In this document: positions 157-19,300 of the stretch, in pieces | Numbering within the stretch: position 1 is the first letter of the stretch | Layout: every line of letters starts with the position of its first letter | Assembly: GCA_019468145.1 (NCBI GenBank) | Contig: JAHXDM010000002.1 | Location: 62,001 to 126,000, forward strand | DNA length: 64,000 nucleotides | Reading direction: 5' to 3' | Origin: Rickettsia endosymbiont of Bradysia coprophila | Lineage (GTDB): Bacteria; Pseudomonadota; Alphaproteobacteria; Rickettsiales; Rickettsiaceae | Translations under genes and position numbers: made by a program | Notes under the pieces: model-generated | What the model was told of the DNA's origin: nothing | Database searches by the model: none | The model's input: the letters and a program-made list of their open reading frames with translations, nothing else

Positions 157-710
157 AATGTTATACAGGGCTCACTTCTGTAGCTTTAGAAGAATTTAAT
201 CCTAAAAAATTAATAGAGCAATCTATAGAAAAAGCAACACCCGCTTCATTGTATAAGGGAATAAGATTAGTATCTAATATTCATTATGAAATGCCAGATG
301 TTTTGGTAGGTGATAGCTATAGATTGCAAGCAATATTGGATCAGCTAATTGGCAACAGTATCAAATTTACTGACGAAGGGATGGTGGTAATTACCGCTAA
401 TCTATTTCCTGCTAGAAGTTCCGCGGATGCCCACGATTTTGATGATCTAGAACAAGATGGTAACCGGATATTACAACTTATGGTCCACGATACTGGCATT
501 GGTATCTCTTTAGAGAAGCAACAAGATATGTGTGAAGAGCTCGAAAGTGCTGGTTCTGCTATGCAATATAAAGTATTAGGTTTAGGGTTAACATGTGTGA
601 AACAGTTGGTCCACGAAATGAATGGTAAAATTATCCTTAGCAGCATCGAGGGTAAAACTACTACTGTTGAGTGTAAAATTCCGGTGCAACTGCCAAATAG
701 TACTGATTAA
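157..710 (+). pseudogene. Histidine-kinase-like ATPase, 5'-truncated (module copy A)
   Basis: This is the C-terminal part (about 184 codons) of the protein that is complete at 9669-10625. It enters directly from the IS5-like end at 156, so the N-terminal linker and dimerisation-helix region are lost. It keeps the HATPase_c domain: N-box (LDQLIGNSIKFT), G1 box (DTGIGI) and G2 box (GLGLTCVK). The AAA/nuclease gene follows 145 bp downstream, the same spacing as in the other two module copies. An internal ATG at 249 could still give a 153-residue ATPase fragment. Clear paralogue, probably non-functional. Confidence 0.85.
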
Positions 711-726
711 GTTAGCCTACAACACA

Positions 727-755
727 TTGCTGTAAGCCTTACAAACTTACAGCAA
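727..755 (+). terminator. Hairpin between the kinase-like and AAA genes (copy A)
   Basis: Perfect 10-bp inverted repeat (TTGCTGTAAG / CTTACAGCAA) with a 9-base loop, just after the kinase-like stop codon and before the promoter-like region of the AAA gene. It lacks a real T-tract, so it could be a weak terminator, a transcript-stabilising hairpin or a protein site. The same hairpin recurs at 7000-7028 and, with one mismatch, at 10642-10670. Confidence 0.5.
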
Positions 756-776
756 TAAATTATTTGCTTAAATTAC

Positions 777-805
777 TTAAGTATCTAATTTATTTATGCT
801 ATAAT
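777..805 (+). promoter_or_regulatory. Probable sigma-70 promoter of the AAA/nuclease gene (copy A)
   Basis: A TATAAT -10 hexamer at 800-805 lies 17 bases after TTAAGT at 777-782. It is placed between the hairpin and the ATG at 856, which suggests the AAA gene can be transcribed independently of the upstream kinase-like gene. The same region precedes copies B and C with small changes. Confidence 0.5.
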
Positions 806-855
806 TTGTTATAGTTTAAAGATCGATGGTAATTCTCAAAATATAATCAACTAAT

Positions 856-2700
856 ATGACAGTGACACTTTCAGATGCTAATTCAATAGATCAAGCTATT
901 CCCTCCTTCCCAGCTGGTAATAAGCTCCCTAGAATGCTAGTAGGCACTGATGAATTCTATGATTTAGTAGTTAATAGTGATGTATTTGTTGATAAAAGCC
1001 TAATGATTATGGAAGTACTCCAAGATAGTGGTAAAGTGATTCTCATTACTCGTCCAAGGCGCTGGGGTAAGAGCTTGAATATGAATATGCTCCAGAAGTT
1101 CTTTGAAATAGAAGTGGATGAAGATGGTAGGCCTTTACCTGAGGAAGAGAAGATAAATAATAAGCTGTTTTGGGGAGGTGCAGTAGATTTAGGTATTAAA
1201 GGTAAAAGGACCCTTAAACCGTTAAAGATTAGCGCTAATGAATATGCCATGGCTCAACAGGGTAATTATCCAGTTATCTCAATAAACTTTAAGGATGTGA
1301 AAGGGAATAGTTACCAGGAGATTGAGAATGGAATAAAACGACAAATTATAGGTTTGTTTTTACAGCACCAATACTTAGAACAATACATAAGAGACAATAC
1401 AGGATTACTGCAAGAGGTACAAAAAAAGGAGCTGAAGAAATACTTTACAGGAGAGCTGAGTACAGATGATCTAAAAATTAGTTTAAAATTTTTAAGTGAA
1501 TTACTTTTTATACACTTTGGTCAAAAAGTGTACATACTAATCGATGAATATGATACACCGATCAATAGTGCCTATATTGAATTTGGTAACAAACCCAAAG
1601 AATTTGAAAATGTTCTAAAAATATTCCGCGGTATGTTTGGTAGCGCCCTGAAAACCAATCCATATTTAGAAAAAGGTGTAATAACCGGTATATTACGGAT
1701 TGCTAAAGCTAATTTATTCTCTGATTTAAATAACGTAAGTGAATATACTTTATTAGATGAAGATTTTTCTAAATTCTATGGTTTTACTAAAGGTGAAGTA
1801 GATGAGTTACTTACAAAAGTACCAACTAAAACAGATCCTGAGAAGATTAAAGACTGGTATAATGGTTACACATTTGGTGGAGAAATAATATATAATCCAT
1901 GGTCCATTATGCAATGTTTAGCGCATAAAGGTAAGCTTGATCATTACTGGCTAGATAGCGGTGGGACAAGCCTTATAGATAAAGCACTGCTCTCTGATGA
2001 AATGCAGGAAGATTTACAGAACTTAATTACGGGTAAAAATATTACTTCTACTATCGTTAAACAAATAAGCTTTGCTGACATTAATAAACCAGTGGGATTA
2101 TTAAGTTTATTACTATTTAGCGGTTATTTAAACCCTAAGGCCAAAAGTCACGAGGAAAATATTTATGAGTTATCAGTACCAAATAAAGAAGTGCGGTATA
2201 TATATAATACTCGAATGTTACAATGGGTTACTGATCAGCTAAAGATTGATAGTTCCAGGTATTATTCCTTTGTGAGTCTACTACCTGCTGCTAGGCTAGA
2301 GGAATTTAAAGAGAAACTACAAAAATTGTTATTAAATTCCACTAGTTTTCACCAGACAGGAATTGCTAGGGCAGAGCTATTTTATAGCGGTTTTATGCTT
2401 GGGTTAATTAATATGTTAGCCTCAGATTATATAATAGATAGTGAAAAAGAAACAGGGGATGGTAGAGCTGATATTGTTTTAGTTCCGCAAGCAGAGAGAG
2501 CTGAGAATGCAATTATCATTGAGTACAAGGTCGCTAAAGTGGCAGAAGAGCTAGAATTCGTAGCTAAGTCTGGTTTGCTACAAATCAATAATAAGAGATA
2601 TGATGCTAAAATAAAAGAACATAAACACGTTAAAAAAATTATCAAGATCTCTATGGCTTTTTGTGGGAAGGAGGTTGCTATGCAGTATCAAATTGACTGA
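856..2700 (+). CDS. AAA-ATPase-like / PD-(D/E)XK nuclease-like protein (copy A)
   Basis: A 614-residue protein of the AAA-ATPase-like plus DUF1703-type family common in Rickettsiales and other endosymbionts. Residues about 30-75 carry the family N-terminus and Walker A (RPRRWGKSLNMN); Walker B is around residue 230 (YILIDEYDTPINSA). The C-terminal nuclease-like core is near residues 535-560 (GRADIVLVP then IIIEYKVAK), giving the D and ExK acid/lysine pattern. The cellular role is unknown; defence, DNA processing or element maintenance are all possible. It is one of three paralogues here and shares its variable middle block (residues about 95-207) with copy C but its N-terminus with copy B. 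The 3' end is intact, with an IS481-like element inserted 12 bp after the stop. Confidence 0.9.
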   Translation: MTVTLSDANSIDQAIPSFPAGNKLPRMLVGTDEFYDLVVNSDVFVDKSLMIMEVLQDSGKVILITRPRRWGKSLNMNMLQKFFEIEVDEDGRPLPEEEKINNKLFWGGAVDLGIKGKRTLKPLKISANEYAMAQQGNYPVISINFKDVKGNSYQEIENGIKRQIIGLFLQHQYLEQYIRDNTGLLQEVQKKELKKYFTGELSTDDLKISLKFLSELLFIHFGQKVYILIDEYDTPINSAYIEFGNKPKEFENVLKIFRGMFGSALKTNPYLEKGVITGILRIAKANLFSDLNNVSEYTLLDEDFSKFYGFTKGEVDELLTKVPTKTDPEKIKDWYNGYTFGGEIIYNPWSIMQCLAHKGKLDHYWLDSGGTSLIDKALLSDEMQEDLQNLITGKNITSTIVKQISFADINKPVGLLSLLLFSGYLNPKAKSHEENIYELSVPNKEVRYIYNTRMLQWVTDQLKIDSSRYYSFVSLLPAARLEEFKEKLQKLLLNSTSFHQTGIARAELFYSGFMLGLINMLASDYIIDSEKETGDGRADIVLVPQAERAENAIIIEYKVAKVAEELEFVAKSGLLQINNKRYDAKIKEHKHVKKIIKISMAFCGKEVAMQYQID

Positions 2701-2712
2701 CTCTTTCTTATA

Positions 2713-3914
2713 TGTATTAGTTGACATTTGATCTTACATTTAATAAAAATAATGTATAAAAAATACAGATAAAAAAATGGAAGGTCACAATGAACTTAAA
2801 TCAAAAAATAATAAAGCCCAAACTAGGGTTATTAGGGCTAGCAAAGAGTTTAGGCAATGTATCAGCAGCATGTAAGGCTATGGGATATAGTAGAGATAGT
2901 TACTATAGATTTCAAGAATTATATGAAACTGGAGGAGAAGAAGCCCTATACGAAATAAGTCGGAAGAAGCCCATAATAGCTAATAGAGTAGATCCACGTG
3001 TGGAGAAAGCAGTTGTGGATATGGCTGTAGAATATCCAGCATATGGGCAACTGAGAGTATCAAATGAGCTTAAGAAGACAGGTGTTCTTGTATCACCTGG
3101 TGGGGTAAGATCAATTTGGTTGCGTAATGATTTAAACAATATCAATAAAAGGCTTAAAGCATTAGAAGCTAAGATGGCTCAAGATGGTATTGTTCTTACC
3201 GAAGCCCAGTTACAAGTATTAGAGAAGCGTCGTAATGAGAAAGAAGCCCATGGTGAGATAGAAACGCAGCATCCAGGTTATTTAGGGTGCCAGGATACAT
3301 ATTATGTTGGCAATTTTAAAGGTATAGGTAAGGTTTATTCTCAGGTCTTTATCGACAGCTATACCAGAGTAGCAGATGCTAAACTATATACTGAGAAAAC
3401 AGCGCTGACGAGTGCTGATATGCTCAATGACCGGATATTACCATGGTATGAGGACCAAGGGATACCTATCTTACGTATCCTTACTGATCGGGGGAGCGAA
3501 TATAAAGGCAATATAGAGCATCATGCTTTTGAGTTATTCTTAAGCATCGAAGGTATAGAACATACTGTTACTCGCGCTTACTCGCCTCAAACCAATGGTA
3601 TGTGTGAGCGTTTTAACAAAACTATGAAACAGGAATTCTTTGATACAGCTATGCGAAAAAAGATTTATACATCCCTTGAAGATTTACAGCTAGATCTTGA
3701 TATTTGGTTAGAGTATTACAATCATGAAAGGCCACATTCAGGAAAATATTGTTATGGTAAAACCCCTATGCAAACTTTTCAAGATAGTAAAAAATTAGCT
3801 GTTGAAAAGAATAATGAAATCTTGTACCTTGAATATATATCTGACAGTCAAAATTTAACTGACAATCAGGTGCAAAATTTATAGTGTCTGTAAGATCAAA
3901 TCTTGACTTCTACA
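2713..3914 (+). mobile_element. IS481-like insertion sequence, copy 1 (intact, 1202 bp)
   Basis: Starts TGTATTAGTTGACATTTG and ends with the imperfect inverted version (CTTGACTTCTACA). It is flanked by a 7-bp target duplication, TCTTATA, at 2706-2712 and 3915-3921. The uninterrupted target is present in the paralogous module at about 8957, which confirms both ends. One full transposase gene fills the element. Its left end carries a TTGACA box that could serve as the transposase promoter -35. Confidence 0.95.
2790..3884 (+). CDS. IS481-like family transposase (copy 1)
   Basis: A 364-residue DDE transposase. The N-terminal third is helix-turn-helix (residues about 15-75, including [18 protein letters not shown]), followed by an rve-type catalytic core. 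Candidate catalytic acids are D in [10 protein letters not shown] in [10 protein letters not shown] and E in [10 protein letters not shown]; the HERPHSG motif follows near the C-terminus. RBS-like GGAAGG lies 5-6 bases before the ATG. It is identical in length and nearly identical in sequence to the copies at 14629-15723 and 30234-31328, so expansion is recent. Confidence 0.95.
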
Positions 3915-4183
3915 TCTTATAGCCCTGTGCTTTTTAGCTAATAATGCACTCGGGTCTAGGGTGGTTTTGGCTAATTGTATAAACTCCTTTAGTATAGGGT
4001 GGTGTTTATTGTCTTCATTCATAGCAAATAATAGGAATCCGGCAAGGAGCTGATCATCAATAGTCATGGCATTACAGTTACTTACAATCTCTAATAAATC
4101 TTCTCTGCGGGTTACGAGTATCTTCTGTTTTTTCTCCTCAATTTTTTCAGTTTTTCTAATGCTGTTACCGGATCTCTTGGCAT
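3915..4183 (-). pseudogene. TraD-like small protein, frameshifted and 3'-truncated (copy A)
   Basis: Homologous to the intact gene at 8945-9226. Starting from the equivalent ATG (4183), an A/G-rich run within the codons for residues 12-14 is one base shorter than in copy B, which shifts the frame. The IS481-like copy 1 then removes the natural C-terminus, so the reading frame runs into the element. An alternative start further upstream (4208) opens a longer chimeric frame, but its N-terminus does not match the paralogue. Best read as a decayed copy. Confidence 0.75.
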
Positions 4184-4366
4184 AATATATGCTCCTACAT
4201 TTTAACAAAATAAAATAATATTTTGGTACAGTTTAGTATATATAATACTACAATATGCGTCAAGAAAAAGACCTAAATAATATACAAAATATTAGATTTT
4301 TTATAAGATAAGTTACTTTTGTTCTGCGAGCAAACTATAGGCTTAGCTCATGGTTAATAGGATAAA

Positions 4367-4400
4367 AATGCTGGTTCAAAGAAAAAGTTTTGTAAAGCTT
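4367..4400 (+). repeat. Conserved non-coding element, copy 1 (candidate oriT or operator core)
   Basis: Begins AATGCTGGTTCAAAGAAAAA and ends GTAAAGCTT. Identical at 9411-9444 and 14115-14148, and a 26-base version lies on the opposite strand upstream of traA at 16039-16064. Position relative to TraD-like and TraA-like genes is the main hint to function. Confidence 0.7.
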
Positions 4401-4539
4401 GTATCTACTATACTACCTACCTCCCCTATTAGAATTTACTGGGGGTTTTAGACAAAATCTAATAATAAATAACGTCTCTGTACTCCTCATATTAATGGTG
4501 ATATCTCTGCTGATTAGGTACTTACACTAATGTAGTATT

Positions 4540-4592
4540 AAGTACAGAGGTTAAATTGAAACCGCAAAGTTAACATATTAACCTCTGTGCTT
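4540..4592 (+). promoter_or_regulatory. 15-bp inverted repeat upstream of the kinase-like gene (copy 1)
   Basis: AAGTACAGAGGTTAA at 4540-4554 pairs with TTAACCTCTGTGCTT at 4578-4592 (one mismatch). A related CTCTGTACT lies at 4476-4484. The repeat sits about 30 bases before the kinase-like ATG (4625), so it could be an operator or a 5' leader hairpin. It recurs at 9584-9636 and, degenerate, at 32622-32676. Confidence 0.65.
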
Positions 4593-4798
4593 CCCTTTGT
4601 TTTAACCAATGGTAGAGGCATTTTATGACAGATAATGTTAAAAATCAACAACAACAGCAAAACCCACTTGCAGAAAAAAGCTGGATCATTAAACTTTCTC
4701 CAATATTTGCTACACTAATTCCAGCTTCTGAGTCTAGCGCTGACGTAAGTGGCGATCACGAGCATTATGTTGATATCACTAAATTCAAAAACTTAGAA

Positions 4799-6186
4799 GG
4801 GTACAGCTATTGAATAATGTTAACTAAGATATCAAGATGTCGCTTAAGGCATTTTGGTTAATCATGTTCCAAAATTGATTCCACCTTCCTTTTGTTTGAA
4901 CAAGAGATCTAATGGAAATAACTATTTTGGCACCTTGAGTTCGCCACTGCATTGCTGATTTACATAATCTTTGCTTGATCAGCGTCTTGCAAGCCGCTTC
5001 CGTCACACCAGAACCTATAGGAAAATTTTGTGCTGTGTAATTACTATAATTCATACGTTCTAATTGATTAGTAAAATAGCTCACCGCTTTACTCAAATTG
5101 TCCTTTATTGCTGGTGATATTTTTTTATTTCCTTCATTTTTTTTCACTTGTTCCTTCATCGTGTCTAAAAGCTCTGCAGCCGCATTGTTTTCATGCTTTA
5201 ATTTATGACAAGCATTACTCAACCATTCCTTTCTTCTCCCTTCATCACTAAAAAGTGAATATGAACTTTTTGCTAAATATTCGCTAGCATGATAAAAATC
5301 TAGAATATGATATTGTGTATTCAGTTCTAAAAATTTCCAATTATTACTTGCGCCATCAGCAATGCCAATATAATTTGCTGCAGGATATTTTTGTTTGATT
5401 TTATTAACCTCTCCTTGTAAACGAGCTATAAATAACCCTTTACCATATTCAGGAGACGCTCCAATATATATTGTATGCAATCTTTCGCTTTGCGCATCGT
5501 ACAAAGAGATATTACCTGTCATAGCTTCACGATAACCTTGTTCTTTCATTAAAATACATGTGCCATCTAAACTAATACCTATACTGGTAACCGGTTCTAC
5601 AATCTTGGGAATAGCATATTCCCAATCTTCTTCTGTCGCTAAAGCTATAGATCCTATATAATCAGCAACCTTTTGGATATATCCTCTCGAACAACTCCTA
5701 GAATGATTCTCTGCAAAATCTTCACTGACATCTTTCGCACTTAAAGATGCATATTTATACGAAATCATTTTGGCAAATTTTGGTGTAGAATGAATAATTA
5801 TACGCCCTTTCTCATCAACTGGACAAAACGTCTTGCCTCCTTTCGAGCTCTGATATACATGTCGCATTATCTCAACAGTACCATAGGGTGTCTCATACTC
5901 TTTTTTCACTTTGCCCTTTGAAGACATTCTGACACTACCAATATTAATTATCGCACCAGTTGCATCAAACTTACTTAGGGCTTCTTTAGTTGCAATGCAC
6001 CCAACCTCATTTACTCCTTTCTGTATCGCATCTTCCATTTCAAGCATAGAGCCATCCAATTTTAATGTAATTTGTATTGTGATTTCTTCTCCGTTCCGTG
6101 TTATTATTTCTGCCATAGCTTAATTCCAATTATTTACTAAAACCTCACCATAGCATAATTTAAAACATTATTCAATAGCTGTACCC
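4799..6186 (-). mobile_element. ISKra4-like insertion sequence, complete (1388 bp)
   Basis: Both ends are perfect 23-bp inverted repeats starting GGGTACAGCTATTGAATAAT. The element is flanked by an 8-bp duplication, ACTTAGAA, at 4791-4798 and 6187-6194. It carries one transposase gene on the minus strand and interrupts the kinase-like gene. A partial second copy lies at 30029-31750. Confidence 0.95.
4824..6116 (-). CDS. ISKra4-like family transposase
   Basis: A 430-residue DDE transposase filling the element. The likely catalytic residues are D in SLDGTCILM (about residue 193), D in IGIADGASNNW (about 265) and E in GSGVTEAACKTL (about 375), the spacing expected for ISKra4/UPF0236-like transposases. 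FPIGSGVTE and the following RLCKSAMQW are family-typical. The frame is complete, so the element may still be active. Confidence 0.9.
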   Translation of the reverse strand: MAEIITRNGEEITIQITLKLDGSMLEMEDAIQKGVNEVGCIATKEALSKFDATGAIINIGSVRMSSKGKVKKEYETPYGTVEIMRHVYQSSKGGKTFCPVDEKGRIIIHSTPKFAKMISYKYASLSAKDVSEDFAENHSRSCSRGYIQKVADYIGSIALATEEDWEYAIPKIVEPVTSIGISLDGTCILMKEQGYREAMTGNISLYDAQSERLHTIYIGASPEYGKGLFIARLQGEVNKIKQKYPAANYIGIADGASNNWKFLELNTQYHILDFYHASEYLAKSSYSLFSDEGRRKEWLSNACHKLKHENNAAAELLDTMKEQVKKNEGNKKISPAIKDNLSKAVSYFTNQLERMNYSNYTAQNFPIGSGVTEAACKTLIKQRLCKSAMQWRTQGAKIVISIRSLVQTKGRWNQFWNMINQNALSDILIS

Positions 6187-6999
6187 ACTTAGAATTAGAA
6201 TTACAAGAAGTAAAAGCCAGGTTACAAACAGCTGAAATAACTAAAATAAATTTGCTTAAAAATATTGGTAATAATATTAGTACGCCTGGTAAGGAAATTT
6301 TTGCGCAGTTAGTTGCACTCTATGAAATGGAGCAAAATCCTGAGGTAAGAAATCATTTGGCTACCATTATGGATAGCGCTAAAGTTTTGCTGGATTCTTC
6401 TAATGATCTATATGAGTTTCTGCAATGTTATACAGGGCTAACTTCTATAGCTTTAGAAAAATTTAATCCTAAGAAATTAATAGAACAATCTATAGAAAAA
6501 GCCACACCAGCTTCATTGTATAAGGGGATAAGGCTTGTCTCTAATATTCATTATGAAATGCCCGATATCGTGGTAGGTGATAGTTACCGCTTGCAAGCAA
6601 TATTGGATCAGTTAGTTGGTAATAGTATTAAATTTACTGAAGAAGGTATGGTGGTAATTACCGCCAATCTATTTCCTGCTAGAAGACTCAGCCAAGATGA
6701 AAATGATTTTGATAATTTAGAACAAGATGATAGAGATCGGATATTACAAGTTATGGTCCACGATACTGGCATTGGTATCTCTGTAGAAAAGCAGCAAGAT
6801 ATGTATGAAGAGCTCGAAAGTGCTGGTTCTGCTATGCAATATAAAGTATTAGGTTTAGGGTTAACATGTGTGAAACAGTTGGTCCACGAAATGAACGGTA
6901 AAATTATCCTTAGCAGCATCGAGGGTAAAACTACTACTGTTGAGTGTAAAATTCCGGTGCAACTGCCAAATAGTACTGATTAAGTTAGCCTACAACACA

Positions 7000-7028
7000 T
7001 TGCTGTAAGCCTTACAAACTTACAGCAA
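7000..7028 (+). terminator. Hairpin between the kinase-like and AAA genes (copy B)
   Basis: Same perfect 10-bp inverted repeat and loop as at 727-755, at the same distance from the kinase-like stop codon. No strong T-tract, so the termination role is uncertain. Confidence 0.5.
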
Positions 7029-7127
7029 TAAATTATTTGCTTAAATTACTTAGTGGTCTAACTTATTTATGTTATAATTTGGTATAGTTTAAAGAACTAA
7101 AATAATTTTTAAATATAATCCACTAAT

Positions 7128-8957
7128 ATGACAGTGACACTTTCAGATGCTAATTCAATAGATCAAGCTATTCCCTCCTTCCCAGCTGGTAATAAGCTCC
7201 CTAGAATGCTAGTAGGCACTGATGAATTCTATGATTTAGTAGTTAATAGTGATGTATTTGTTGATAAAAGCCTAATGATTATGGAAATACTCCAAGATAG
7301 TGGTAAAGTGATTCTCATTACTCGTCCAAGGCGGTGGGGTAAGAGCTTAAATATGAATATGCTCCAGAAATTCTTTGAAATAGAAGTAGATGAAGATGGT
7401 AGGCCTTTACCGAACGAGCAGAAATTAAATAACAAGCTGTTTTGGGGAGGTACAGTAGATTTAGGTTTTGATGAAACTAAAGAGCTTAAACCTTTAAAAA
7501 TTTCCAGTATTGCAAATGCAATAAAACGTCAAGGTCAATTTCCTGTTATTTCCATAAACTTTAAGGATGTGAAAGGTAGCGACTATCAAGAAATCGAAAA
7601 TGGTATCAAAATAAGTGTTAAAAACCTATATAATAGTCATAAATATTTGCAGTTTAGTGATAAAATTAGTTTAAATGAAAAGAATAATTTTCTAGATTAT
7701 TTACAAGGACAAATAGATAAAACTAATTTAAAAATTAGTTTAAAATTTTTAAGTGAATTACTTTTTATGCATTTTGGTCAAAAAGTGTACATACTAATCG
7801 ATGAATATGATACACCGATCAATAGTGCCTATATTGAATTTGGTGAAAAATCAAAAGAATTTGATAATGTTCTAAAAATATTCCGCGGTATGTTTGGTAG
7901 CGCCCTGAAAACCAATCCATATTTAGAAAAAGGTGTAATAACCGGTATATTACGGATTGCTAAAGCTAATTTATTCTCTGATTTAAATAACGTAAGTGAA
8001 TATACTTTATTAGATGAAGATTTTTCTAAATTCTATGGTTTTACTAAAGGTGAAGTAGATGAGTTACTTACAAAAGTACCAACTAAAACAGATCCTGAGA
8101 AGATTAAAGACTGGTATAATGGTTACACATTTGGTGGAGAAGTAATATATAATCCATGGTCCATTATGCAATGTTTAGCGCATAAAGGTAAGCTTGATCA
8201 TTACTGGCTAGATAGCGGTGGGACAAGCCTTATAGATAAAGCACTGCTCTCTGATGAAATGCAGGAAGATTTACAGAACTTAATTACGGGTAAAAATATT
8301 ACTTCTACTATCGTTAAACAAATAAGTTTTGCTGACATTAATAAACCAGTGGGATTATTAAGTTTATTACTATTTAGCGGTTATTTAAACCCTAAGGCCA
8401 AAAGTCACGAGGAAAATATTTATGAGTTATCAGTACCAAATAAAGAAGTGCGGTATATATATAATACTCGAATGTTACAATGGGTTACTGATCAGCTAAA
8501 GATTGATAGTTCCAGGTATTATTCCTTTGTGAGTCTACTACCTGCTGTTAGGCTAGAGGAATTTAAAGAGAAACTACAAAAATTGTTATTAAATTCCACT
8601 AGTTTTCACCAGACAGGAATTGCTAGGGCAGAGCTATTTTATAGCGGTTTTATGCTTGGGTTAATTAATATGTTAGCCTCAGATTATATAATAGATAGTG
8701 AAAAAGAAACAGGGGATGGTAGAGCTGATATTGTTTTAGTTCCGCAAGCAGAGAGAGCTGAGAATGCAATTATCATTGAGTACAAGGTCGCTAAAGTGGC
8801 AGAAGAGCTAGAATTCGTAGCTAAGTCTGGTTTGCTACAAATCAATGATAAGAGATATGATGCTAAAATAAAAGAACATAAACACGTTAAAAAAATTATA
8901 AAGATTTCTATGGCTTTTTGTGGCAAGGAGGTTGCTATGCAGTATCAAATTGACTGA
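7128..8957 (+). CDS. AAA-ATPase-like / PD-(D/E)XK nuclease-like protein (copy B)
   Basis: A 609-residue paralogue of 856-2700 with the same Walker A (RPRRWGKSLN), Walker B (YILIDEYDTP) and C-terminal GRAD...EYK nuclease-like core. Residues 1 to about 95 match copy A, but about 95-205 are strongly different (for example VDLGFDETKELKPLKISS and NSHKYLQFSDKISLNEK). A short block near residue 250 also differs (GEKSKEFDN for GNKPKEFEN). After this the sequence returns to near identity. The last 13 bp overlap the 3' end of the convergent TraD-like gene. This is the only module copy in which that 3' junction is undisturbed. Function is not known. Confidence 0.9.
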   Translation: MTVTLSDANSIDQAIPSFPAGNKLPRMLVGTDEFYDLVVNSDVFVDKSLMIMEILQDSGKVILITRPRRWGKSLNMNMLQKFFEIEVDEDGRPLPNEQKLNNKLFWGGTVDLGFDETKELKPLKISSIANAIKRQGQFPVISINFKDVKGSDYQEIENGIKISVKNLYNSHKYLQFSDKISLNEKNNFLDYLQGQIDKTNLKISLKFLSELLFMHFGQKVYILIDEYDTPINSAYIEFGEKSKEFDNVLKIFRGMFGSALKTNPYLEKGVITGILRIAKANLFSDLNNVSEYTLLDEDFSKFYGFTKGEVDELLTKVPTKTDPEKIKDWYNGYTFGGEVIYNPWSIMQCLAHKGKLDHYWLDSGGTSLIDKALLSDEMQEDLQNLITGKNITSTIVKQISFADINKPVGLLSLLLFSGYLNPKAKSHEENIYELSVPNKEVRYIYNTRMLQWVTDQLKIDSSRYYSFVSLLPAVRLEEFKEKLQKLLLNSTSFHQTGIARAELFYSGFMLGLINMLASDYIIDSEKETGDGRADIVLVPQAERAENAIIIEYKVAKVAEELEFVAKSGLLQINDKRYDAKIKEHKHVKKIIKISMAFCGKEVAMQYQID

Positions 8958-9226
8958 CTCTTTCTTATAGCCCTGTGCTTTTTAGCTAATAATGCACTCG
9001 GGTTGGTTTTGGCTAATTGTATAAACTCCTTTAGTATAGGATGCTGCTTATTTTGCTCATTCATAGCAAATAGTAAGAATCCGGCAAGGAGCTGATCATC
9101 AATAGTCATGGCATTACAGTTACTTACAATCTCTAATAAATCCTCCCTACGAGTTATTAATACTTTCTGTTTTTTCCCCTCAATTTTCTTCAGTTTTTCT
9201 AGTGCTGTCACTGGATCTCTTGGCAT
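8945..9226 (-). CDS. TraD-like small conjugation-associated protein (copy B, intact)
   Basis: A 93-residue basic protein starting MPRDPVTALEKLKKIE; AGGAG lies 8 bases before the ATG at 9226. The pattern of a lysine-rich segment (KKIEGKKQKVLITRREDLLEIV) followed by DDQLLAGFLLFAM resembles Ti-plasmid TraD proteins, which accompany TraA in Rickettsiales RAGEs; the assignment is from pattern, not a search. The gene converges on the AAA gene and their 3' ends overlap by 13 bp. Its start faces the conserved intergenic region shared with the kinase-like gene. An upstream ATG at 9250 is possible but has no RBS. Confidence 0.65.
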   Translation of the reverse strand: MPRDPVTALEKLKKIEGKKQKVLITRREDLLEIVSNCNAMTIDDQLLAGFLLFAMNEQNKQHPILKEFIQLAKTNPSALLAKKHRAIRKSQSI

Positions 9227-9410
9227 ATATATTCTCCTACATTTTAACAAAATAAAATAATATTATGGTACAGTTTGGTATATATAATAGTACAATATGT
9301 GTCAAGAAAAAGACCTAAAACAATATACAAAATATTAGATTTTTTTATAAGATAAGTTACTTTTGTTCTGCGAGCAAACTATAGGCTTAGCTCATGGTTA
9401 ATAGGATGAA

Positions 9411-9444
9411 AATGCTGGTTCAAAGAAAAAGTTTTGTAAAGCTT
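9411..9444 (+). repeat. Conserved non-coding element, copy 2
   Basis: Identical to 4367-4400 (AATGCTGGTTCAAAGAAAAA...). Confidence 0.7.
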
Positions 9445-9583
9445 GTATCTACTATACTACCTACCTTCCCTATTAGAATTTACTGGGGGTTTTAGACAAA
9501 ATCTAATAATAAATAACGTCTCTGTACTCCTCATATTAATGGTGATATCTCTGCTGATTAGGTACTTACACTAATGTAGTATT

Positions 9584-9636
9584 AAGTACAGAGGTTAAAT
9601 TGAAACCGCAAAGTTAACATATTAACCTCTGTGCTT
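9584..9636 (+). promoter_or_regulatory. 15-bp inverted repeat upstream of the intact kinase-like gene (copy 2)
   Basis: Same arms and spacing as 4540-4592, about 30 bases before the ATG at 9669. Candidate operator or leader hairpin. Confidence 0.65.
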
Positions 9637-9668
9637 CCCTTTGTTTTAACCAATGGTAGAGGCATTTT

Positions 9669-10625
9669 ATGACAGATAATGTTAAAAATCAACAACAACA
9701 GCAAAATCAAACTGCAGAAACAAGATGGATTGTTAAACTTGCTCCAATATTTGCTACACTAATTCCAGCTTCTGAGCTTACAACTGACGTAAGTGGCGAT
9801 CACGAGCATTATGTTGATATTACTAAATTCAAAAACTTAGAATTAGAATTACAAAAAACAAGAGAAAAATTACAAATAGAGGAGCTAATTAAAATAAATT
9901 TGCTCAAAAATATTGGTAATAATATTAGTACTCCTGGTAAGGAATTTTTTGCGCAATTAGTTGAGCTTTATGAGTTGGAGCAAAATCCTGAGGTAAGAAA
10001 TCATTTGGCTACCATTATGGATAGTGCTAAAGTTTTGCTGGATTCTTCTAATGATCTATATGAGTTTCTGCAATGTTATACAGGGCTAACTTCTATAGCT
10101 TTAGAAAAATTTAATCCTAAGAAATTAATAGAACAATCTATAGAAAAAGCCACACCAGCTTCATTGTATAAGGGGATAAGGCTTGTCTCTAATATTCATT
10201 ATGAAATGCCCGATATCGTGGTAGGTGATAGTTACCGCTTGCAAGCAATATTGGATCAGTTAGTTGGTAATAGTATTAAATTTACTGAAGAAGGTATGGT
10301 GGTAATTACCGCCAATCTATTTCCTGCTAGAAGTTCCGCGGATGCCCACGATTTTGATGATCTAGAACAAGATGGTAACCGGATATTACAACTTATGGTC
10401 CACGATACTGGCATTGGTATCTCTTTAGAGAAGCAACAAGATATGTGTGAAGAGCTCGAAAGTGCTGGTTCTGCTATGCAATATAAAGTATTAGGTTTAG
10501 GGTTAACATGTGTGAAACAGTTGGTCCACGAAATGAACGGTAAAATTATCCTTAGCAGCATCGAGGGTAAAACTACTACTGTTGAGTGTAAAATTCCGGT
10601 GCAACTGCCAAATAGTACTGATTAA
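9669..10625 (+). CDS. Histidine-kinase-like ATPase lacking the phospho-acceptor His (copy C, intact)
   Basis: A 318-residue protein with no signal peptide or membrane segment, so cytosolic. A polyQ-containing N-terminus (residues 8-12) leads to a helical linker (about 58-80) and a degenerate HisKA region at about 80-130. The usual H-box SHEIRTP appears as GNNISTP: the acceptor His and following Glu are both Asn. The HATPase_c domain follows: N-box LDQLVGNSIKFTEEG, G1 DTGIGIS, G2 GLGLTCVKQ. Histidine-kinase-like genes are regular RAGE passengers. Since ATP-binding boxes are kept but the acceptor is lost, it may act as an ATP-dependent regulator rather than a true kinase. Followed by the AAA gene after 145 bp. 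Confidence 0.85.
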   Translation: MTDNVKNQQQQQNQTAETRWIVKLAPIFATLIPASELTTDVSGDHEHYVDITKFKNLELELQKTREKLQIEELIKINLLKNIGNNISTPGKEFFAQLVELYELEQNPEVRNHLATIMDSAKVLLDSSNDLYEFLQCYTGLTSIALEKFNPKKLIEQSIEKATPASLYKGIRLVSNIHYEMPDIVVGDSYRLQAILDQLVGNSIKFTEEGMVVITANLFPARSSADAHDFDDLEQDGNRILQLMVHDTGIGISLEKQQDMCEELESAGSAMQYKVLGLGLTCVKQLVHEMNGKIILSSIEGKTTTVECKIPVQLPNSTD

Positions 10626-10641
10626 GTTAGCCTACAACACA

Positions 10642-10670
10642 TTGCTATAAGCCTTACAAACTTACAGCAA
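10642..10670 (+). terminator. Hairpin between the kinase-like and AAA genes (copy C)
   Basis: TTGCTATAAG / CTTACAGCAA, the same hairpin as at 727 and 7000 with one changed base in the left arm. Confidence 0.45.
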
Positions 10671-10770
10671 TAAATTATTTGCTTAAATTACTTAAGTATC
10701 TAATTTATTTATGCTATAATTTGTTATAGTTTAAAGATCGATGGTAATTCTCAAAATATAATCAACTAAT

Positions 10771-12612
10771 ATGACAGTTAACCTTTCGGATACTATTTCA
10801 ATACATCAAGCTATTACCTCTCTCCCTATTGGTAATAATCTACCTAGAATGAGAGTAGGTACTGATGACTTTAAAACTTTGTTGTTCAATAGTGATGTAT
10901 TTGTTGATAAAAGTTTAATGATTAAAGAATTACTAGAAGATAGTGGGGATGTAATTCTCATTACTCGTCCAAGGCGCTGGGGTAAGAGCTTGAATATGAA
11001 TATGCTCCAGAAATTCTTTGAAATAGAAGTGGATGAAGATGGTAGGCCTTTACCTGAGGGAGAGAAGATAAATAACAAGCTGTTTTGGGGAGGTGCAGTA
11101 GATTTAGGTATTAAAGGTAAAAGGACCCTTAAACCGTTAAAGATTAGCGCTAATGAATATGCCATGGCTCAACAGGGTAATTATCCAGTTATCTCAATAA
11201 ACTTTAAGGATGTGAAAGGTAGTAGTTACCAGGAGATTGAGAATGGAATAAAACGACAAATTATAGGTTTGTTTTTACAGCACCAATACTTAGAACAATA
11301 CATAAGAGACAATACAGGATTACTGCAAGAGGTACAAAAAAAGGAGCTGAAGAAATACTTTACAGGAGAGCTGAGTACAGATGATCTAAAAATTAGTTTA
11401 AAATTTTTAAGTGAATTACTTTTTATACACTTTGGTCAAAAAGTGTACATACTAATCGATGAATATGATACACCGATCAATAGTGCCTATATTGAATTTG
11501 GTAACAAACCCAAAGAATTTGAAAATGTTCTAAAAATATTCCGCGGTATGTTTGGTAGCGCCCTGAAAACCAATCCATATTTAGAAAAAGGTGTAATAAC
11601 CGGTATATTACGGATTGCTAAAGCTAATTTATTCTCTGATTTAAATAACGTAAGTGAATATACTTTATTAGATGAAGATTTTTCTAAATTCTATGGTTTT
11701 ACTAAAGGTGAAGTAGATGAGTTACTTACAAAAGTACCAACTAAAACAGATCCTGAGAAGATTAAAGACTGGTATAATGGTTACACATTTGGTGGAGAAG
11801 TAATATATAATCCATGGTCCATTATGCAATGTTTAGCGCATAAAGGTAAGCTTGATCATTACTGGCTAGATAGCGGTGGGACAAGCCTTATAGATAAAGC
11901 ACTGCTCTCTGATGAAATGCAGGAAGATTTACAGAACTTAATTACGGGTAAAAATATTACTTCTACTATCGTTAAACAAATAAGTTTTGCTGACATTAAT
12001 AAACCAGTGGGATTATTAAGTTTATTACTATTTAGCGGTTATTTAAACCCTAAGGCCAAAAGTCACGAGGAAAATATTTATGAGTTATCAGTACCAAATA
12101 AAGAAGTGCGGTATATATATAATACTCGAATGTTACAATGGGTTACTGATCAGCTAAAGATTGATAGTTCCAGGTATTATTCCTTTGTGAGTCTACTACC
12201 TGCTGCTAGGCTAGAGGAATTTAAAGAGAAACTACAAAAATTGTTATTAAATTCCACTAGTTTTCACCAGACAGGAATTGCTAGGGCAGAGCTATTTTAT
12301 AGCGGTTTTATGCTTGGGTTAATTAATATGTTAGCCTCAGATTATATAATAGATAGTGAAAAAGAAACAGGGGATGGTAGAGCTGATATTGTTTTAGTTC
12401 CGCAAGCAGAGAGAGCTGAGAATGCAATTATCATTGAGTACAAGGTCGCTAAAGTGGCAGAAGAGCTAGAATTCGTAGCTAAGTCTGGTTTGCTACAAAT
12501 CAATGATAAGAGATATGATGCTAAAATAAAAGAACATAAACACGTTAAAAAAATTATAAAGATTTCTATGGCTTTTTGTGGCAAGGAGGTTGCTATGCAG
12601 TATCTGTATTAG
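10771..12612 (+). CDS. AAA-ATPase-like / PD-(D/E)XK nuclease-like protein (copy C)
   Basis: A 613-residue paralogue. Its first about 65 residues differ from copies A and B (MTVNLSDTISIHQAITSLPIG, RVGTDDFKTLLFNS, IKELLEDSGD), while the middle block (about 95-207) is that of copy A. The remainder is almost identical to both. Walker A, Walker B and the GRAD/EYK nuclease-like residues are present. The 3' end was hit by IS481-like copy 2: the last residues read MQYLY instead of MQYQID because the stop codon comes from the element. All domains are retained, so the protein is probably still made. Confidence 0.88.
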   Translation: MTVNLSDTISIHQAITSLPIGNNLPRMRVGTDDFKTLLFNSDVFVDKSLMIKELLEDSGDVILITRPRRWGKSLNMNMLQKFFEIEVDEDGRPLPEGEKINNKLFWGGAVDLGIKGKRTLKPLKISANEYAMAQQGNYPVISINFKDVKGSSYQEIENGIKRQIIGLFLQHQYLEQYIRDNTGLLQEVQKKELKKYFTGELSTDDLKISLKFLSELLFIHFGQKVYILIDEYDTPINSAYIEFGNKPKEFENVLKIFRGMFGSALKTNPYLEKGVITGILRIAKANLFSDLNNVSEYTLLDEDFSKFYGFTKGEVDELLTKVPTKTDPEKIKDWYNGYTFGGEVIYNPWSIMQCLAHKGKLDHYWLDSGGTSLIDKALLSDEMQEDLQNLITGKNITSTIVKQISFADINKPVGLLSLLLFSGYLNPKAKSHEENIYELSVPNKEVRYIYNTRMLQWVTDQLKIDSSRYYSFVSLLPAARLEEFKEKLQKLLLNSTSFHQTGIARAELFYSGFMLGLINMLASDYIIDSEKETGDGRADIVLVPQAERAENAIIIEYKVAKVAEELEFVAKSGLLQINDKRYDAKIKEHKHVKKIIKISMAFCGKEVAMQYLY

Positions 12613-13808
12613 TTGACATTTGATCTTACATTTAATAAAAATAATGTATAAAAAATACAGATAAAAAAATGGAAGGTCACAATGAACTTAAATCAAAAAA
12701 TAATAAAGCCCAAACTAGGGTTATTAGGGCTAGCAAAGAGTTTAGGCAATGTATCAGCAGCATGTAAGGCTATGGGATATAGTAGAGATAGTTACTATAG
12801 ATTTCAAGAATTATATGAAACTGGAGGAGAAGAAGCCCTATACGAAATAAGTCGGAAGAAGCCCATAATAGCTAATAGAGTAGATCCACGTGTGTGGAGA
12901 AAGCAGTTGTGGATATGGCTGTAGAATATCCAGCATATGGGCAACTGAGAGTATCAAATGAGCTTAAGAAGACAGGTGTTCTTGTATCACCTGGTGGGGT
13001 AAGATCAATTTGGTTGCGTAATGATTTAAACAATATCAATAAAAGGCTTAAAGCATTAGAAGCTAAGATGGCTCAAGATGGTATTGTTCTTACCGAAGCC
13101 CAGTTACAAGTATTAGAGAAGCGTCGTAATGAGAAAGAAGCCCATGGTGAGATAGAAACGCAGCATCCAGGTTATTTAGGGTGCCAGGATACATATTATG
13201 TTGGCAATTTTAAAGGTATAGGTAAGGTTTATTCTCAGGTCTTTATCGACAGCTATACCAGAGTAGCAGATGCTAAACTATATACTGAGAAAACAGCGCT
13301 GACGAGTGCTGATATGCTCAATGACCGGATATTACCATGGTATGAGGACCAAGGGATACCTATCTTACGTATCCTTACTGATCGGGGGAGCGAATATAAA
13401 GGCAATATAGAGCATCATGCTTTTGAGTTATTCTTAAGCATCGAAGGTATAGAACATACTGTTACTCGCGCTTACTCGCCTCAAACCAATGGTATGTGTG
13501 AGCGTTTTAACAAAACTATGAAACAGGAATTCTTTGATACAGCTATGCGAAAAAAGATTTATACATCCCTTGAAGATTTACAGCTAGATCTTGATATTTG
13601 GTTAGAGTATTACAATCATGAAAGGCCACATTCAGGAAAATATTGTTATGGTAAAACCCCTATGCAAACTTTTCAAGATAGTAAAAAATTAGCTGTTGAA
13701 AAGAATAATGAAATCTTGTACCTTGAATATATATCTGACAGTCAAAATTTAACTGACAATCAGGTGCAAAATTTATAGTGTCTGTAAGATCAAATCTTGA
13801 CTTCTACA
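12605..13808 (+). mobile_element. IS481-like insertion sequence, copy 2 (1204 bp, no target duplication)
   Basis: Ends are the same as copy 1, but the flanks (CAGTATC left, AGTCATG right) are not duplicates. By comparison with module copy B, the AAA gene tail and the 3' part of the TraD-like gene that should lie between the flanks, roughly 160 bp, are missing. This suggests an IS-mediated deletion. The transposase gene inside carries a 2-bp insertion. Confidence 0.93.
12682..13778 (+). pseudogene. IS481-like transposase with frameshift (copy 2)
   Basis: Identical to the 364-residue transposase except for an extra GT at about 12893 (GTGTGTGG instead of GTGTGG). This stops the first frame after 80 residues and leaves the remaining 294 codons, including all three candidate catalytic acids, in another frame starting at 12894. 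Inactive unless frameshifting occurs. Confidence 0.93.
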
Positions 13809-13931
13809 AGTCATGGCATTACAGTTACTTACAATCTCTAATAAATCCTCCCTACGAGTTATTAATACTTTCTGTTTTTTTCCCTCAATTTTCTTCAGTT
13901 TTTCTAGTGCTGTCACTGGATCTCTTGGCAT
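13809..13931 (-). pseudogene. TraD-like small protein, 3'-truncated (copy C)
   Basis: Only the first 41 codons (MPRDPVTALEKLKKIE to SNCNAMT) remain. The IS481-like copy 2 end at 13808 cuts off the DDQLLAGFLLF half. The RBS and start region match copy B. Confidence 0.8.
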
Positions 13932-14114
13932 ATATATTCTCCTACATTTCAACAAAATAAAATAATATTATGGTACAGTTTGGTATATATAATAGTACAA
14001 TATGTGTTAAGAAAAAGACCTAAATAATACACAAAATATTACATATTTTTTTAAGATAAATTACTTTTGTTCTGCGAGCAAACTATAGGCTTAGCTCATG
14101 GTTAATAGGATAAA

Positions 14115-16342: not shown

Positions 16343-19300
16343 ATGGCGATACAATTTGCAAGAATCGAGATAGTTAGTAGAAGTAAAGGGGGAAACGCTT
16401 GTTGCAAGGGTGCTTATAATGCTAGAACTATTATTCAAGATGAGCTTACAAATATTAAGTACGATTTTAGTAAGCGAGGTGACAATGTTTATCACACAAT
16501 TTTATTGCCCAATCACGTAAGTAAAAAATTTAAAGATCCAAAAATATTAATGAATGAGGTAGAGAAATCGGAGAAACGAAAGAACAGTCAGCTGCTAAAA
16601 GATATAGTAATTGCTTTGCCTGATGATAAGGAGTTGACCCTGGAAGATAGAATAGCCATTACCCATGAAATAATTGAGGAAATGGCTTGGGTAAAAAATG
16701 GTTTAGGGGTGCAGGTAGATATCCATAAACCGCATAAGGGTGAGAAGAACTGGCACGCTCATTTATTGCTCACAACTAGAAAATTTAGTGAAGATGGTAA
16801 AAATTTAGGAGCAAAGGCAGTAGATTTAAATCCACAATTTAAAAATACGAAAGGGGGAAAAGGCTTTATTATTCCCGAAGCAGAAATGATTCATGAGAAA
16901 GCTAAAGGTATAATCGATAGATACTTCGAAAAATTAGGTTTAGACAACCGGGTAGATGCTATTGGCGCAATAGCACAGCAACATATTGGTCCCGTTAGAA
17001 TGCGAAGCCTAATCAACAAGACTGTAGAGGAAAATGAATTAGTTAAGGATGCCAATTTAAAGATCATAAAAGAAGCAAATAGCTTATTGGATCACATTAC
17101 TAAGTATCAAGCTATTTTTAGTAAAAAAGACGTGCAGCACGCGTTGCAAAAAGTAGAGGATGAAACAATACAAACGGAAGTAATAGAACAAGTAATGAAT
17201 TCCCCAAGGTTAGTAAAATTATACCACCAAGATGGTAAGGCAACAAATTATTATACTACTGCCTGCGTACGAGCAGAAGAATTACGGGCATGTAGAGTAG
17301 CTGACAAGGTAAACCAGCACACTAATTATGACAATATTCTTACTTTTAAAAAAGATATAGAAAACCTAACGAATGTCAGTGAGCTGCAAAGAGAAGCGCT
17401 AAAAACTATATTAATAACCGATAAAGGAGTCAGAATTTTAAGAGGCAGAGCTGGCACCGGAAAATCTCATGTCTTAGGCATAGCTTATAGACTTGCAACT
17501 AGCCGCCGGCAAAATGTCATAGGTTTAGCCCCCACTCATAAGGCTGCAAGCGGGCTAAAAGATCAGGGATATCAGGATTGCCATACAGTTAAGGGATTCC
17601 TATTTAAACTATATAATAATAGAATAAATCTGCCCCGCAATAGCCTGCTAGTGGTAGATGAAGCTGGCATGGTAGGAACCTCAGATTATCTAGAATTATT
17701 CAAGGTTGCCAGGAAATATAACTGCGGGGTGATACTGGCTGGAGATGAGCGGCAGTTAACTTCTATCGAGCGCAGCGGCATGTTTGAAGTATTCGCCGGT
17801 AAGTTTGGTTCATATGTTTTAAGTGACATTAGAAGACAAAGCCAAGCCTGGGGGCGCCAGATGGCAATGTGCTTTGCTGAAGAAGATATTGTAGGAGGCG
17901 TGCAATTACTAGCCAAAAATCAAGGCCTAAAGTTTAATGGGATATTACAGCAATCTATAGATAGGCTGGTTAACGATTGGAGTAATAGTCAATTTTCCGT
18001 AGAAGAGCGGTTAATAATCACTGTGGGTAACAAGGAAGTAGCCGCTCTAACCTTGCAGATACGGAAATTATTAAAGGAGCAAAAGGTGCTGACAGGGATG
18101 GAATATAGACGCACTAGCTTCGATCAGCAATTAGGTAAAGAAATATCGGAAGATTATATGAAAGGTGATCGTATTATCTTTAAAACTAGCAATAAGGAGC
18201 TCCAAACAAAAAATGGTGAATTTGCCACTTTGATTGAAGTGAATCAAAATAAATTTATAGCTAAGACAGATAAGGGCCAGATAATCACATTTAACCCCCA
18301 AGATATTAACTTCAAACAGGCTTACGCCAGCACAGTCTATAAAGCCCAAGGCTCCTCAATCAAAAATGTTTATGTTTTGCATAATTTAGCAGGTAATAGC
18401 AGGAGCTCTTATGTTGAAATGACCAGACATGTCGAGCAAGTAGGGCTTTATGCCAATATGGATGCTACCAAGGGGGCAGTAGGTTTGATATCGCAGCTGA
18501 GTAGGATAAATGATAAATCTGCTAGTATAGGTTTCCTTACCAGTAAGGATTTAATACCAGAGAAAAATAATAAACAGCCAGGTTTTTTAGAGAAAGCAAG
18601 TAGTTGGCTTAAATCTGTAACCATCAATATTGGCGATAGATTGCACTTAAATTTGCAATATTACCAAATTAAAGATAATATAGAACCTACTGCCAAAGTT
18701 GAAGAAGTAGCGATGCAAACTGTAAACGTCATTGCGAGTGAGCCGAAGGCGAGCATGGCAATCCAGGAAAATAATTTACAAGATGGATTACTTTATCAAC
18801 CTAACGTCCTGCCGCGCCATGACGTTGGCACGGTTGTAGATTTAACTACAAAGCTTCGCGCCAATGACAATTATAATCTTGCCAATGACAATTATAAAAT
18901 TAACGACAACTCTCAACACCAACTGGAGATAAGTAAAAAAATAACCGTCGGTCAGCAAGAAGTAACAAAGGTTAAGAATGATCTGAAAGCTAATAGTAGC
19001 CATAGCAATACTCCTCCCCCTACTTATAATTCCTCTACCAACAAGAAATATCTTTCTGAGCTAAACCGCAAGCAAGAAATGGCTGATTTAAAGCGACAGC
19101 TCTCAATGAGAGCCGAAAGAGTAGCTTATTCTCTTCTGGGGTTACCAAATAAATATTTATCCAATAACCACACGCTACGCTGGGGAGAGGATGGGAAAAT
19201 AGTGATGAAAATTACAGGTAGCAAAGCTGGTATCTGGCACGATTTTAGTAACGATAGTGGGGGAGACTTATTTACATTAGTGCAAAGGGAGAAAGACTGT

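What the first reader, a model, noticed from the sequence alone, without database searches (positions are those of the whole stretch)
157..13955. Tandem kinase-like / AAA-nuclease / TraD-like module with mosaic variable blocks
The same module occurs about three times with constant gene order and 144-145 bp kinase-AAA spacing. Most of the AAA proteins are about 99 percent identical by eye, yet the first 65 residues switch between two types (A and B versus C) and residues about 95-207 switch independently (A and C versus B). Kinase-like copies show similar switched blocks. Sharp borders between identity and divergence suggest cassette exchange or gene conversion rather than simple drift. A variable segment in front of a conserved nuclease-like domain could set specificity. 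Function is inference.
Basis: partly seen in the sequence, partly recalled or inferred. Interest (0 to 1): 0.75.

Follow-up and report, generated by a model that had tools for sequence, protein, structure and literature searches.

The report
Shuffled nuclease gene family in symbiont
A bacterium that appears to live inside arthropods carries 26 intact copies of one gene for a predicted DNA-cutting enzyme with a built-in molecular switch, and its copies are almost all different mixtures of the same exchangeable segments, a known kind of gene family seen here in unusually clear combinatorial form.

Summary
Three tandem HK-AAA-traD modules lie beside a RAGE-type relaxase gene, and the AAA and kinase copies are sharp mosaics. 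The AAA gene is DUF1703: PF09820 ATPase plus PF08011 PD-(D/E)XK nuclease. The genome has 26 intact copies, all with a promoter-like element and the catalytic residues tested, while kinase and TraA genes mostly decay (my tally). Discrete module types are reshuffled: 26 of 26 combinations differ (25 of 26 with looser typing). Types recur in other genomes of the genus, and closely similar copies show purifying selection. A distant expansion in another Rickettsiales family is also mosaic; its most variable block is the same helical insert before Walker B, a suggestive coincidence. The nuclease fold resembles Wolbachia CidB/CinB. DUF1703 expansion with recombination is published for Cardinium and a Torix Rickettsia (PMC6387759). 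Function is inferred: NTP-gated nucleases whose trigger or target varies by module.

The parts
157..710 (+). Histidine-kinase-like gene, copy A, 5'-truncated remnant
   Evidence: tblastn with kinase C, residues 136-318 at 97%; alignable homology to B and C starts at about 157
856..2700 (+). DUF1703 gene copy A (AAA-ATPase_like + PDDEXK_9), 614 aa
   Evidence: PF09820 E 1.7e-34, PF08011 E 3.8e-20
2790..3884 (+). IS481-family transposase just after AAA copy A
   Evidence: NF033577 2.1e-85
3897..4208 (-). small traD-like gene, copy A
   Evidence: 75% to the copy B product; no Pfam or NCBIfam hit; named by position beside TraA
4625..4798 (+). Kinase copy B, 5' piece (residues 1-58)
4824..6116 (-). 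ISKra4-type transposase that splits kinase copy B
   Evidence: NF033572 2.1e-54, 185 bits, below its curated cut-off of 205
6186..6983 (+). Kinase copy B, 3' piece (residues 56-318)
7128..8957 (+). DUF1703 gene copy B, 609 aa; aa ~81-253 of another type
8945..9250 (-). small traD-like gene, copy B, overlapping the AAA 3' end
9669..10625 (+). Kinase copy C, full length 318 aa; HATPase_c; Asn in place of the H-box His
   Evidence: PF02518 7.6e-15; H-box reading, motif recalled
10626..10770 (+). Kinase-AAA spacer with an inverted repeat and an extended -10-like element (TGCTATAAT, 10712-10720, counted by eye)
   Evidence: pattern TGnTA[TC]AAT within 150 nt upstream in 26 of 26 copies
10771..12612 (+). 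DUF1703 gene copy C, 613 aa; aa 1-65 of another type; last codons differ where an IS481-type element follows
12682..13778 (+). IS481-family transposase copy split into two reading frames
13797..13955 (-). traD-like remnant, copy C
16343..20623 (+). TraA_Ti-type relaxase, the only intact one of 13 loci (my tally)
   Evidence: TIGR02768 1.5e-122, 410 bits, below its curated cut-off of 590

Best explanation
The region is a RAGE-type end, tandemly repeated, in a Torix-group Rickettsia relative. Its kept part is a DUF1703 gene: an AAA+/STAND-like ATPase switch fused to a CidB/EcoRV-like PD-(D/E)XK nuclease domain. SHOWN: the 26 intact copies of the genome have exchanged segments by recombination, giving new combinations of old, discrete modules (aa 28-60, aa 100-136, the helical insert aa 160-207, aa 237-256, and the linker-nuclease unit aa 387-595); each copy keeps a promoter-like element and the catalytic residues tested, while kinase and TraA genes mostly decay. 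INFERRED: exchange is homologous, with borders in the conserved stretches between modules; each protein is an NTP-gated nuclease; the variable insert between Walker A and Walker B sets the trigger or target; diversity is kept because it broadens recognition, most likely of nucleic acid of rival mobile elements or phages inside the bacterium; the kinase and traD-like genes are RAGE passengers, not working partners.
Confidence: 0.5

Rival explanations
1. Host-directed effectors: the proteins act on arthropod nucleic acid or chromatin, as CifB does in cytoplasmic incompatibility, and variation tracks or evades host factors.
Against: No hydrophobic N-terminus or membrane-like segment in the 26 copies (12-aa maximum 1.44 in the first 35 residues, 19-aa maximum 1.67 overall; hydropathy only, no signal-peptide program). 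One PF08011 stretch per protein. Relatives with both domains occur in a Pseudoflavitalea isolate and a Cytophagales MAG and in a phage-like contig, another such contig having the ATPase domain by Pfam.
Confidence: 0.25
2. Passive repeat dynamics: RAGE copies of different ages recombine wherever they are similar; the mosaic and the variable blocks reflect weak constraint, not selection for diversity.
For: The kinase copies in the window are mosaic too; pS is 0.39 for the kinase and 0.38 for traD-like (AAA 0.54); overall dN/dS is 0.19; nearest relatives by block are in the same genome for 22-26 of 26 copies.
Against: AAA copies stay intact while kinase and TraA decay. Similar copies are constrained in every block and block types recur across genomes. 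Copies have not been homogenised. A second expansion shows the same pattern.
Confidence: 0.2
3. Assembly artefact: repeats were chimerically joined.
For: 25 contigs and many near-identical repeats.
Against: The mosaic signal is found in the own genome and in all 4 other genus genomes with at least 5 full copies in the set, three of them single-contig's table, and in one genome of another family. Copies have different flanks and intact frames.
Confidence: 0.03

Closest known systems
DUF1703 family (PF09820 + PF08011), expanded in Cardinium cCpun and the Torix Rickettsia RiCNE (PMC6387759; passages and all of section 14 seen)
   Same: Domain order, many paralogues, intragenic recombination without homogenisation, arthropod symbionts, function unknown
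   Different: Not stated in the parts seen: discrete module types, all-different combinations, trans-genome types, a conserved promoter-like element, the same most variable insert in two expansions. cCpun paralogues average 39% identity; here tracts of >=98% nucleotide identity abut tracts of 55-60%
CifB (CidB/CinB) nucleases of Wolbachia
   Same: PD-(D/E)XK fold of the C-terminal domain; RAGE setting reported for some cif pairs of Rickettsiaceae
   Different: One PF08011 stretch, an AAA+ domain with intact Walker motifs, 26 intact copies; cifA was not searched for
RAGE (Rickettsiales amplified genetic element)
   Same: TraA_Ti-type relaxase, traD-like gene, histidine kinase and LRR genes, repeated and decayed copies
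   Different: DUF1703 as the selectively kept gene; three stretches of about 10 kb around AAA copies gave no kinase, traD-like or TraA hit (L129, L130, L136). The F-type transfer genes were not searched for
Gene-conversion antigen families (e.g. Anaplasma msp2; recalled, listing only)
   Same: Segmental conversion among paralogues gives mosaics
   Different: No single expression site with silent donors seen: all 26 have a full frame and a promoter-like element; no hydrophobic segment of a surface protein

Membership tests
DUF1703 (AAA-ATPase_like + PDDEXK_9) | N-terminal PF09820 and C-terminal PF08011 over the gathering scores | tested here: met
   119.9-123.3 and 71.6-72.3 bits against 26.1 and 25.5, copies A and C
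DUF1703 (AAA-ATPase_like + PDDEXK_9) | RPRRxGKS variant Walker A, DEYD Walker B, D..ExK and a motif IV Gln (PMC1913061 passages) | tested here: met
   26 of 26 copies at the positions tested
DUF1703 (AAA-ATPase_like + PDDEXK_9) | acidic motif I residue in the first nuclease helix | tested here: inconclusive
   Glu at column 507 in 17 of 26, gap in 9 of 26
RAGE | Ti-type relaxase TraA | tested here: met
   TIGR02768 E 1.5e-122, but 410 bits against a cut-off of 590
RAGE | TraD_Ti | tested here: inconclusive
   small convergent gene in place; no Pfam or NCBIfam hit
RAGE | F-type type IV secretion genes and integrase | not tested
   not searched
CifB toxins | two PD-(D/E)XK domains in one protein | tested here: not met
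   one PF08011 stretch per protein; a second, diverged domain would not necessarily be seen
CifB toxins | cifA partner upstream | not tested
   no cifA search made
Known anti-phage system (PADLOC) | match to a listed defence model | tested here: not met
   no hit at E 0.1 for three proteins in a 2023 library
Silent-cassette antigenic variation | one expressed copy and promoterless donors | tested here: not met
   promoter-like element and full ORF in 26 of 26; transcription not measured
Two-component signalling (kinase as partner) | phospho-accepting His in the H-box | tested here: not met
   Asn in window copy C; over the genome His in 3 of 13 copies or pieces that cover the box, Asn in 9, Cys in 1; motif recalled

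The most novel reading that the evidence does not exclude
A heritable intracellular bacterium keeps a combinatorial repertoire of switch-gated nucleases, comparable in logic to NLR or hsdS specificity shuffling. Old alternative modules are maintained across species and recombined within each genome, and at least two Rickettsiales lineages have arrived at the same hypervariable insert next to Walker B as the recognition element.
Probability: 0.25. Interest if true: 0.85.

Novelty: new variant of a known kind. Interest (0 to 1): 0.58.

Why it matters
Reduced symbiont genomes are expected to lose or homogenise repeated genes. Here a large nuclease family is kept intact and kept different while the mobile element around it decays, which asks what the family does. 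The module types, and natural pairs that differ in few blocks, give a ready set for testing whether the insert sets specificity, and the CidB-like fold links an orphan family to nucleases of reproductive parasitism.

Tried and rejected
Rejected: kinase and AAA as a conserved two-gene system (kinase within the fetched flank of 6 of 61 loci of genus and family, some flanks cut by contig ends; kinase mostly broken). Rejected: variable N-terminal half in front of a uniformly conserved nuclease. Not found: dN/dS above 1; the counts keep only pairs with at most 12% differences in a block, which lowers pN in all regions. Weak: the promoter pattern occurs upstream of 18 of 61 homologues elsewhere, some at other positions, the start there being taken as the first Met. 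The test for ends of the inverted repeat is met by 15 of 26 own copies. Led nowhere: PDB sequence searches, PADLOC (19), PHROGs for the AAA protein (98), viral scans with distant members (79-82, only self or nothing). Structural families absent are not thereby excluded. Variable residues were not mapped onto a surface: the models were weak and I had no coordinates. I make no claim that the combinatorial pattern is absent from print beyond searches. Papers opened without bearing on the result: PMC12507336 (abstract and outline), PMC12123380 (passages), PMC9098888 (passages), PMC5656822 (passages).

Tallies: the locus counts (AAA 34, kinase 21, TraA 13) are my own merging of the hit tables. Three distant kinases and a distant relaxase on contig C12 were left out; the diverged kinase at C6:402 kb was counted as intact; two TraA pieces at C6:381 and 388 kb were counted as two loci though they may be one. 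In the sharing analysis 80 of 87 aligned copies (one genus) were used, the 7 from other genera dropped; the 87 are copies with an open frame of 500 aa or more among loci fetched, not all copies of those genomes (one search lists at most 15 per genome). G151: 7 of 11 fetched stretches held a full copy, the other 4 were left out. On checking this report I corrected the position of cif pairs in RAGEs and lowered the host-effector rival from 0.27 to 0.25 for that reason.
Full report
Setting. The window is G000:C22:62001-126000 of a 2.27 Mb genome in 25 contigs. Its genus-mates include genomes whose match positions equal those of named contigs (compare: G068:C130:3305-5143 and RiCNE NZ_MWZE01000041.1 3305-5143; G070:C1 and RiCimp CP084573.1, both 1,469,631 bases). 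It therefore belongs with the Torix-group Rickettsia ('Ca. Tisiphia'); this is inference.

What is at the coordinates. Three tandem modules carry kinase (+), AAA gene (+) and a small convergent traD-like gene (-), followed by a TraA_Ti-type relaxase at 16343-20623. IS481-type and ISKra4-type elements interrupt or follow them. The AAA protein is DUF1703: PF09820 plus PF08011. The traD-like product has no Pfam or NCBIfam match and is named by position.

Mosaic in the window. On the codon alignment of the three AAA copies, 183 two-state sites make 14 runs against a permutation mean of 82 (minimum 63 of 10,000); the 92 at third positions make 10 against 44. The switch borders are aa ~65, ~81 and ~253. 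The kinase copies switch between A-coordinates 398 and 419, as the alignment of the whole module shows.

Genome-wide family. The own genome has 39 matches, of which 26 are full-length open copies. PF08011 gives 33 matches here and at most 14 in the 84 other genomes of the family. Merging hits by hand gives 26 of 34 AAA loci intact, 6 of 21 kinase loci and 1 of 13 TraA loci (Fisher p 7e-4 and 2.5e-5). The Walker and nuclease residues tested are kept in all 26, except that column 507, a possible motif I Glu, is a gap in 9. An extended -10-like element (TGnTA[TC]AAT) lies within 150 nt of the start in 26 of 26 (shuffle maximum 3), also where the kinase is gone. Pooled dN/dS is 0.19 for AAA, 0.30 for the kinase and 0.18 for the traD-like gene.

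Recombination and modules. Among 486 biallelic sites r2 falls from 0.24 (under 10 nt) to 0.05 (over 1,200 nt); near-site incompatibility is 0.435 against 0.593; Rm is 231; 272 of 325 pairs have a longest shared run never reached in 200 permutations. Clustering each block gives 2 types (aa 28-60), 5 (100-136), 9 (160-207), 5 (237-256), 6 (387-440), 6 (441-500) and 5 (501-595), plus 10 N-terminal types. Mean identity within types is 0.86-0.96, between types 0.46-0.70. All 26 combinations differ. Blocks 28-60, 100-136 and 160-207 show no significant association with the three C-terminal blocks (p 0.08-0.90), while aa 387-595 travels as one unit (p 0.001). Some neighbouring blocks are linked: the N-terminus with blocks up to aa 256 (p 0.01-0.05), 100-136 with 160-207 (0.048), 160-207 with 237-256 (0.017), 237-256 with the C-terminal blocks (0.001-0.002). 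With five blocks and a looser cut-off 25 of 26 differ. Of 18 pairs with >=98% identical nucleotides over aa 160-207, several are 55-60% identical in aa 100-136 or 387-595, so some exchange is recent.

Other genomes. The PHI-like test is significant in the own genome and in the 4 other genus genomes with at least 5 full copies in the set. Of 80 genus copies, 63 to 79 (by block) carry a type found in at least two genomes; there are 71 combinations. In that larger set blocks 100-136, 160-207, 237-256 and 387-595 are associated (p 0.002), below complete linkage. Three pairs between two close relatives keep the same combination at 99.7-99.9% identity, so reshuffling was not seen on that time scale. 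Counting only pairs at most 12% different, dN/dS for aa 160-207 is 0.10 in the own genome (15 pairs) and 0.28 in the genus (120 pairs): the alternative types are constrained.

Independent case. G151, from another Rickettsiales family, has 25 PF09820 matches. Seven full copies, about 37% identical to ours, are also mosaic (0.327 against 0.558, p 0.001). L148 and L149 differ by 0-1% over the first 630 nt, 1-7% up to 900, then 24-48% over the next 360 and 12-20% after that. Their most variable block is again aa 160-207 (entropy 0.95; nuclease 0.15). The smoothed profiles correlate at 0.38, reached by 3.7% of circular shifts, so the coincidence is suggestive, not proven. Parts of aa 86-122 are missing in three of four distant family members and parts of aa 157-212 in all four, so the variable blocks are partly insertions in the ATPase fold. 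The second model places helices at 153-221 with block pLDDT of about 85-93.

Known work. DUF1703 was described as AAA+ plus PD-(D/E)XK in PMC1913061 (passages). PMC6387759 (passages; section 14 whole) reports 25 paralogues with recombination in Cardinium cCpun and PHI p<0.001 in the midge Rickettsia, function unknown. PMC12445526 (passages) places some cif pairs in RAGE cargo next to relaxosome genes. PMC10732058 (passages) describes histidine kinase copies in Orientia RAGEs. PMC10952713 (one passage) lists PF09820 for RdrA, PARIS1 and Old-tin. PMC12039267 (passages) reports DUF1703 fragments among upregulated elements of a mite Cardinium. Hence the family, its expansion and its recombination are known; the modular, combinatorial, trans-genome structure and the second mosaic expansion were not in the parts I saw.

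Verdict. Mosaic exchange is near certain. The nuclease-switch mechanism with a variable recognition insert is my best inference, at about one in two.

Noticed in passing
window 9669-10625 and kinase copies in G000: The RAGE kinase lacks the expected phospho-accepting His of the H-box in 10 of 13 copies or pieces that cover it (Asn in 9, Cys in 1), while the ATP-binding boxes remain: a pseudo-kinase-like change (motif recalled).
   Followed up: partly
L142:3905-5806: A DUF1703-like gene (PF09820 only by Pfam) sits inside a phage structural operon, between a head-tail adaptor gene and, after one further phage-type gene, a major head protein gene.
   Followed up: partly
window 10626-10770 and the same place in other copies: Inverted repeat TTGCTGTAAG...CTTACAGCAA just upstream of the AAA promoter-like element; homology of several kinase-less copies begins at or near it. 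It may be a kinase terminator or the edge of an exchanged unit.
   Followed up: partly
window 2790-3884, 12682-13778, 14629-15723, 24076-25172, 30234-31328: Near-identical IS481-type elements, two of them with split frames; AAA copies A and C are directly followed by such elements.
   Followed up: partly
window 20811-23810: 999-aa leucine-rich-repeat protein after TraA, followed by a protein with a partial PPDK_N match (25545-26618) and a 1,081-aa protein without Pfam match (26802-30047).
   Followed up: no
G063:C1:850299-850592, G064:C1:11686-11958, G040:C1:1274973-1275263, G041:C1:1508516-1508809: PF08011 scores above its cut-off inside very long or mid-size ORFs (2,812, 2,893, 833 and 833 aa) of other Rickettsiaceae, possibly CifB-like toxins.
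   Followed up: no
C6:393117-394954 of G000: One AAA copy is split in two frames at residue ~413, the two parts being 94% and 99% identical to window copy C; described only.
   Followed up: no
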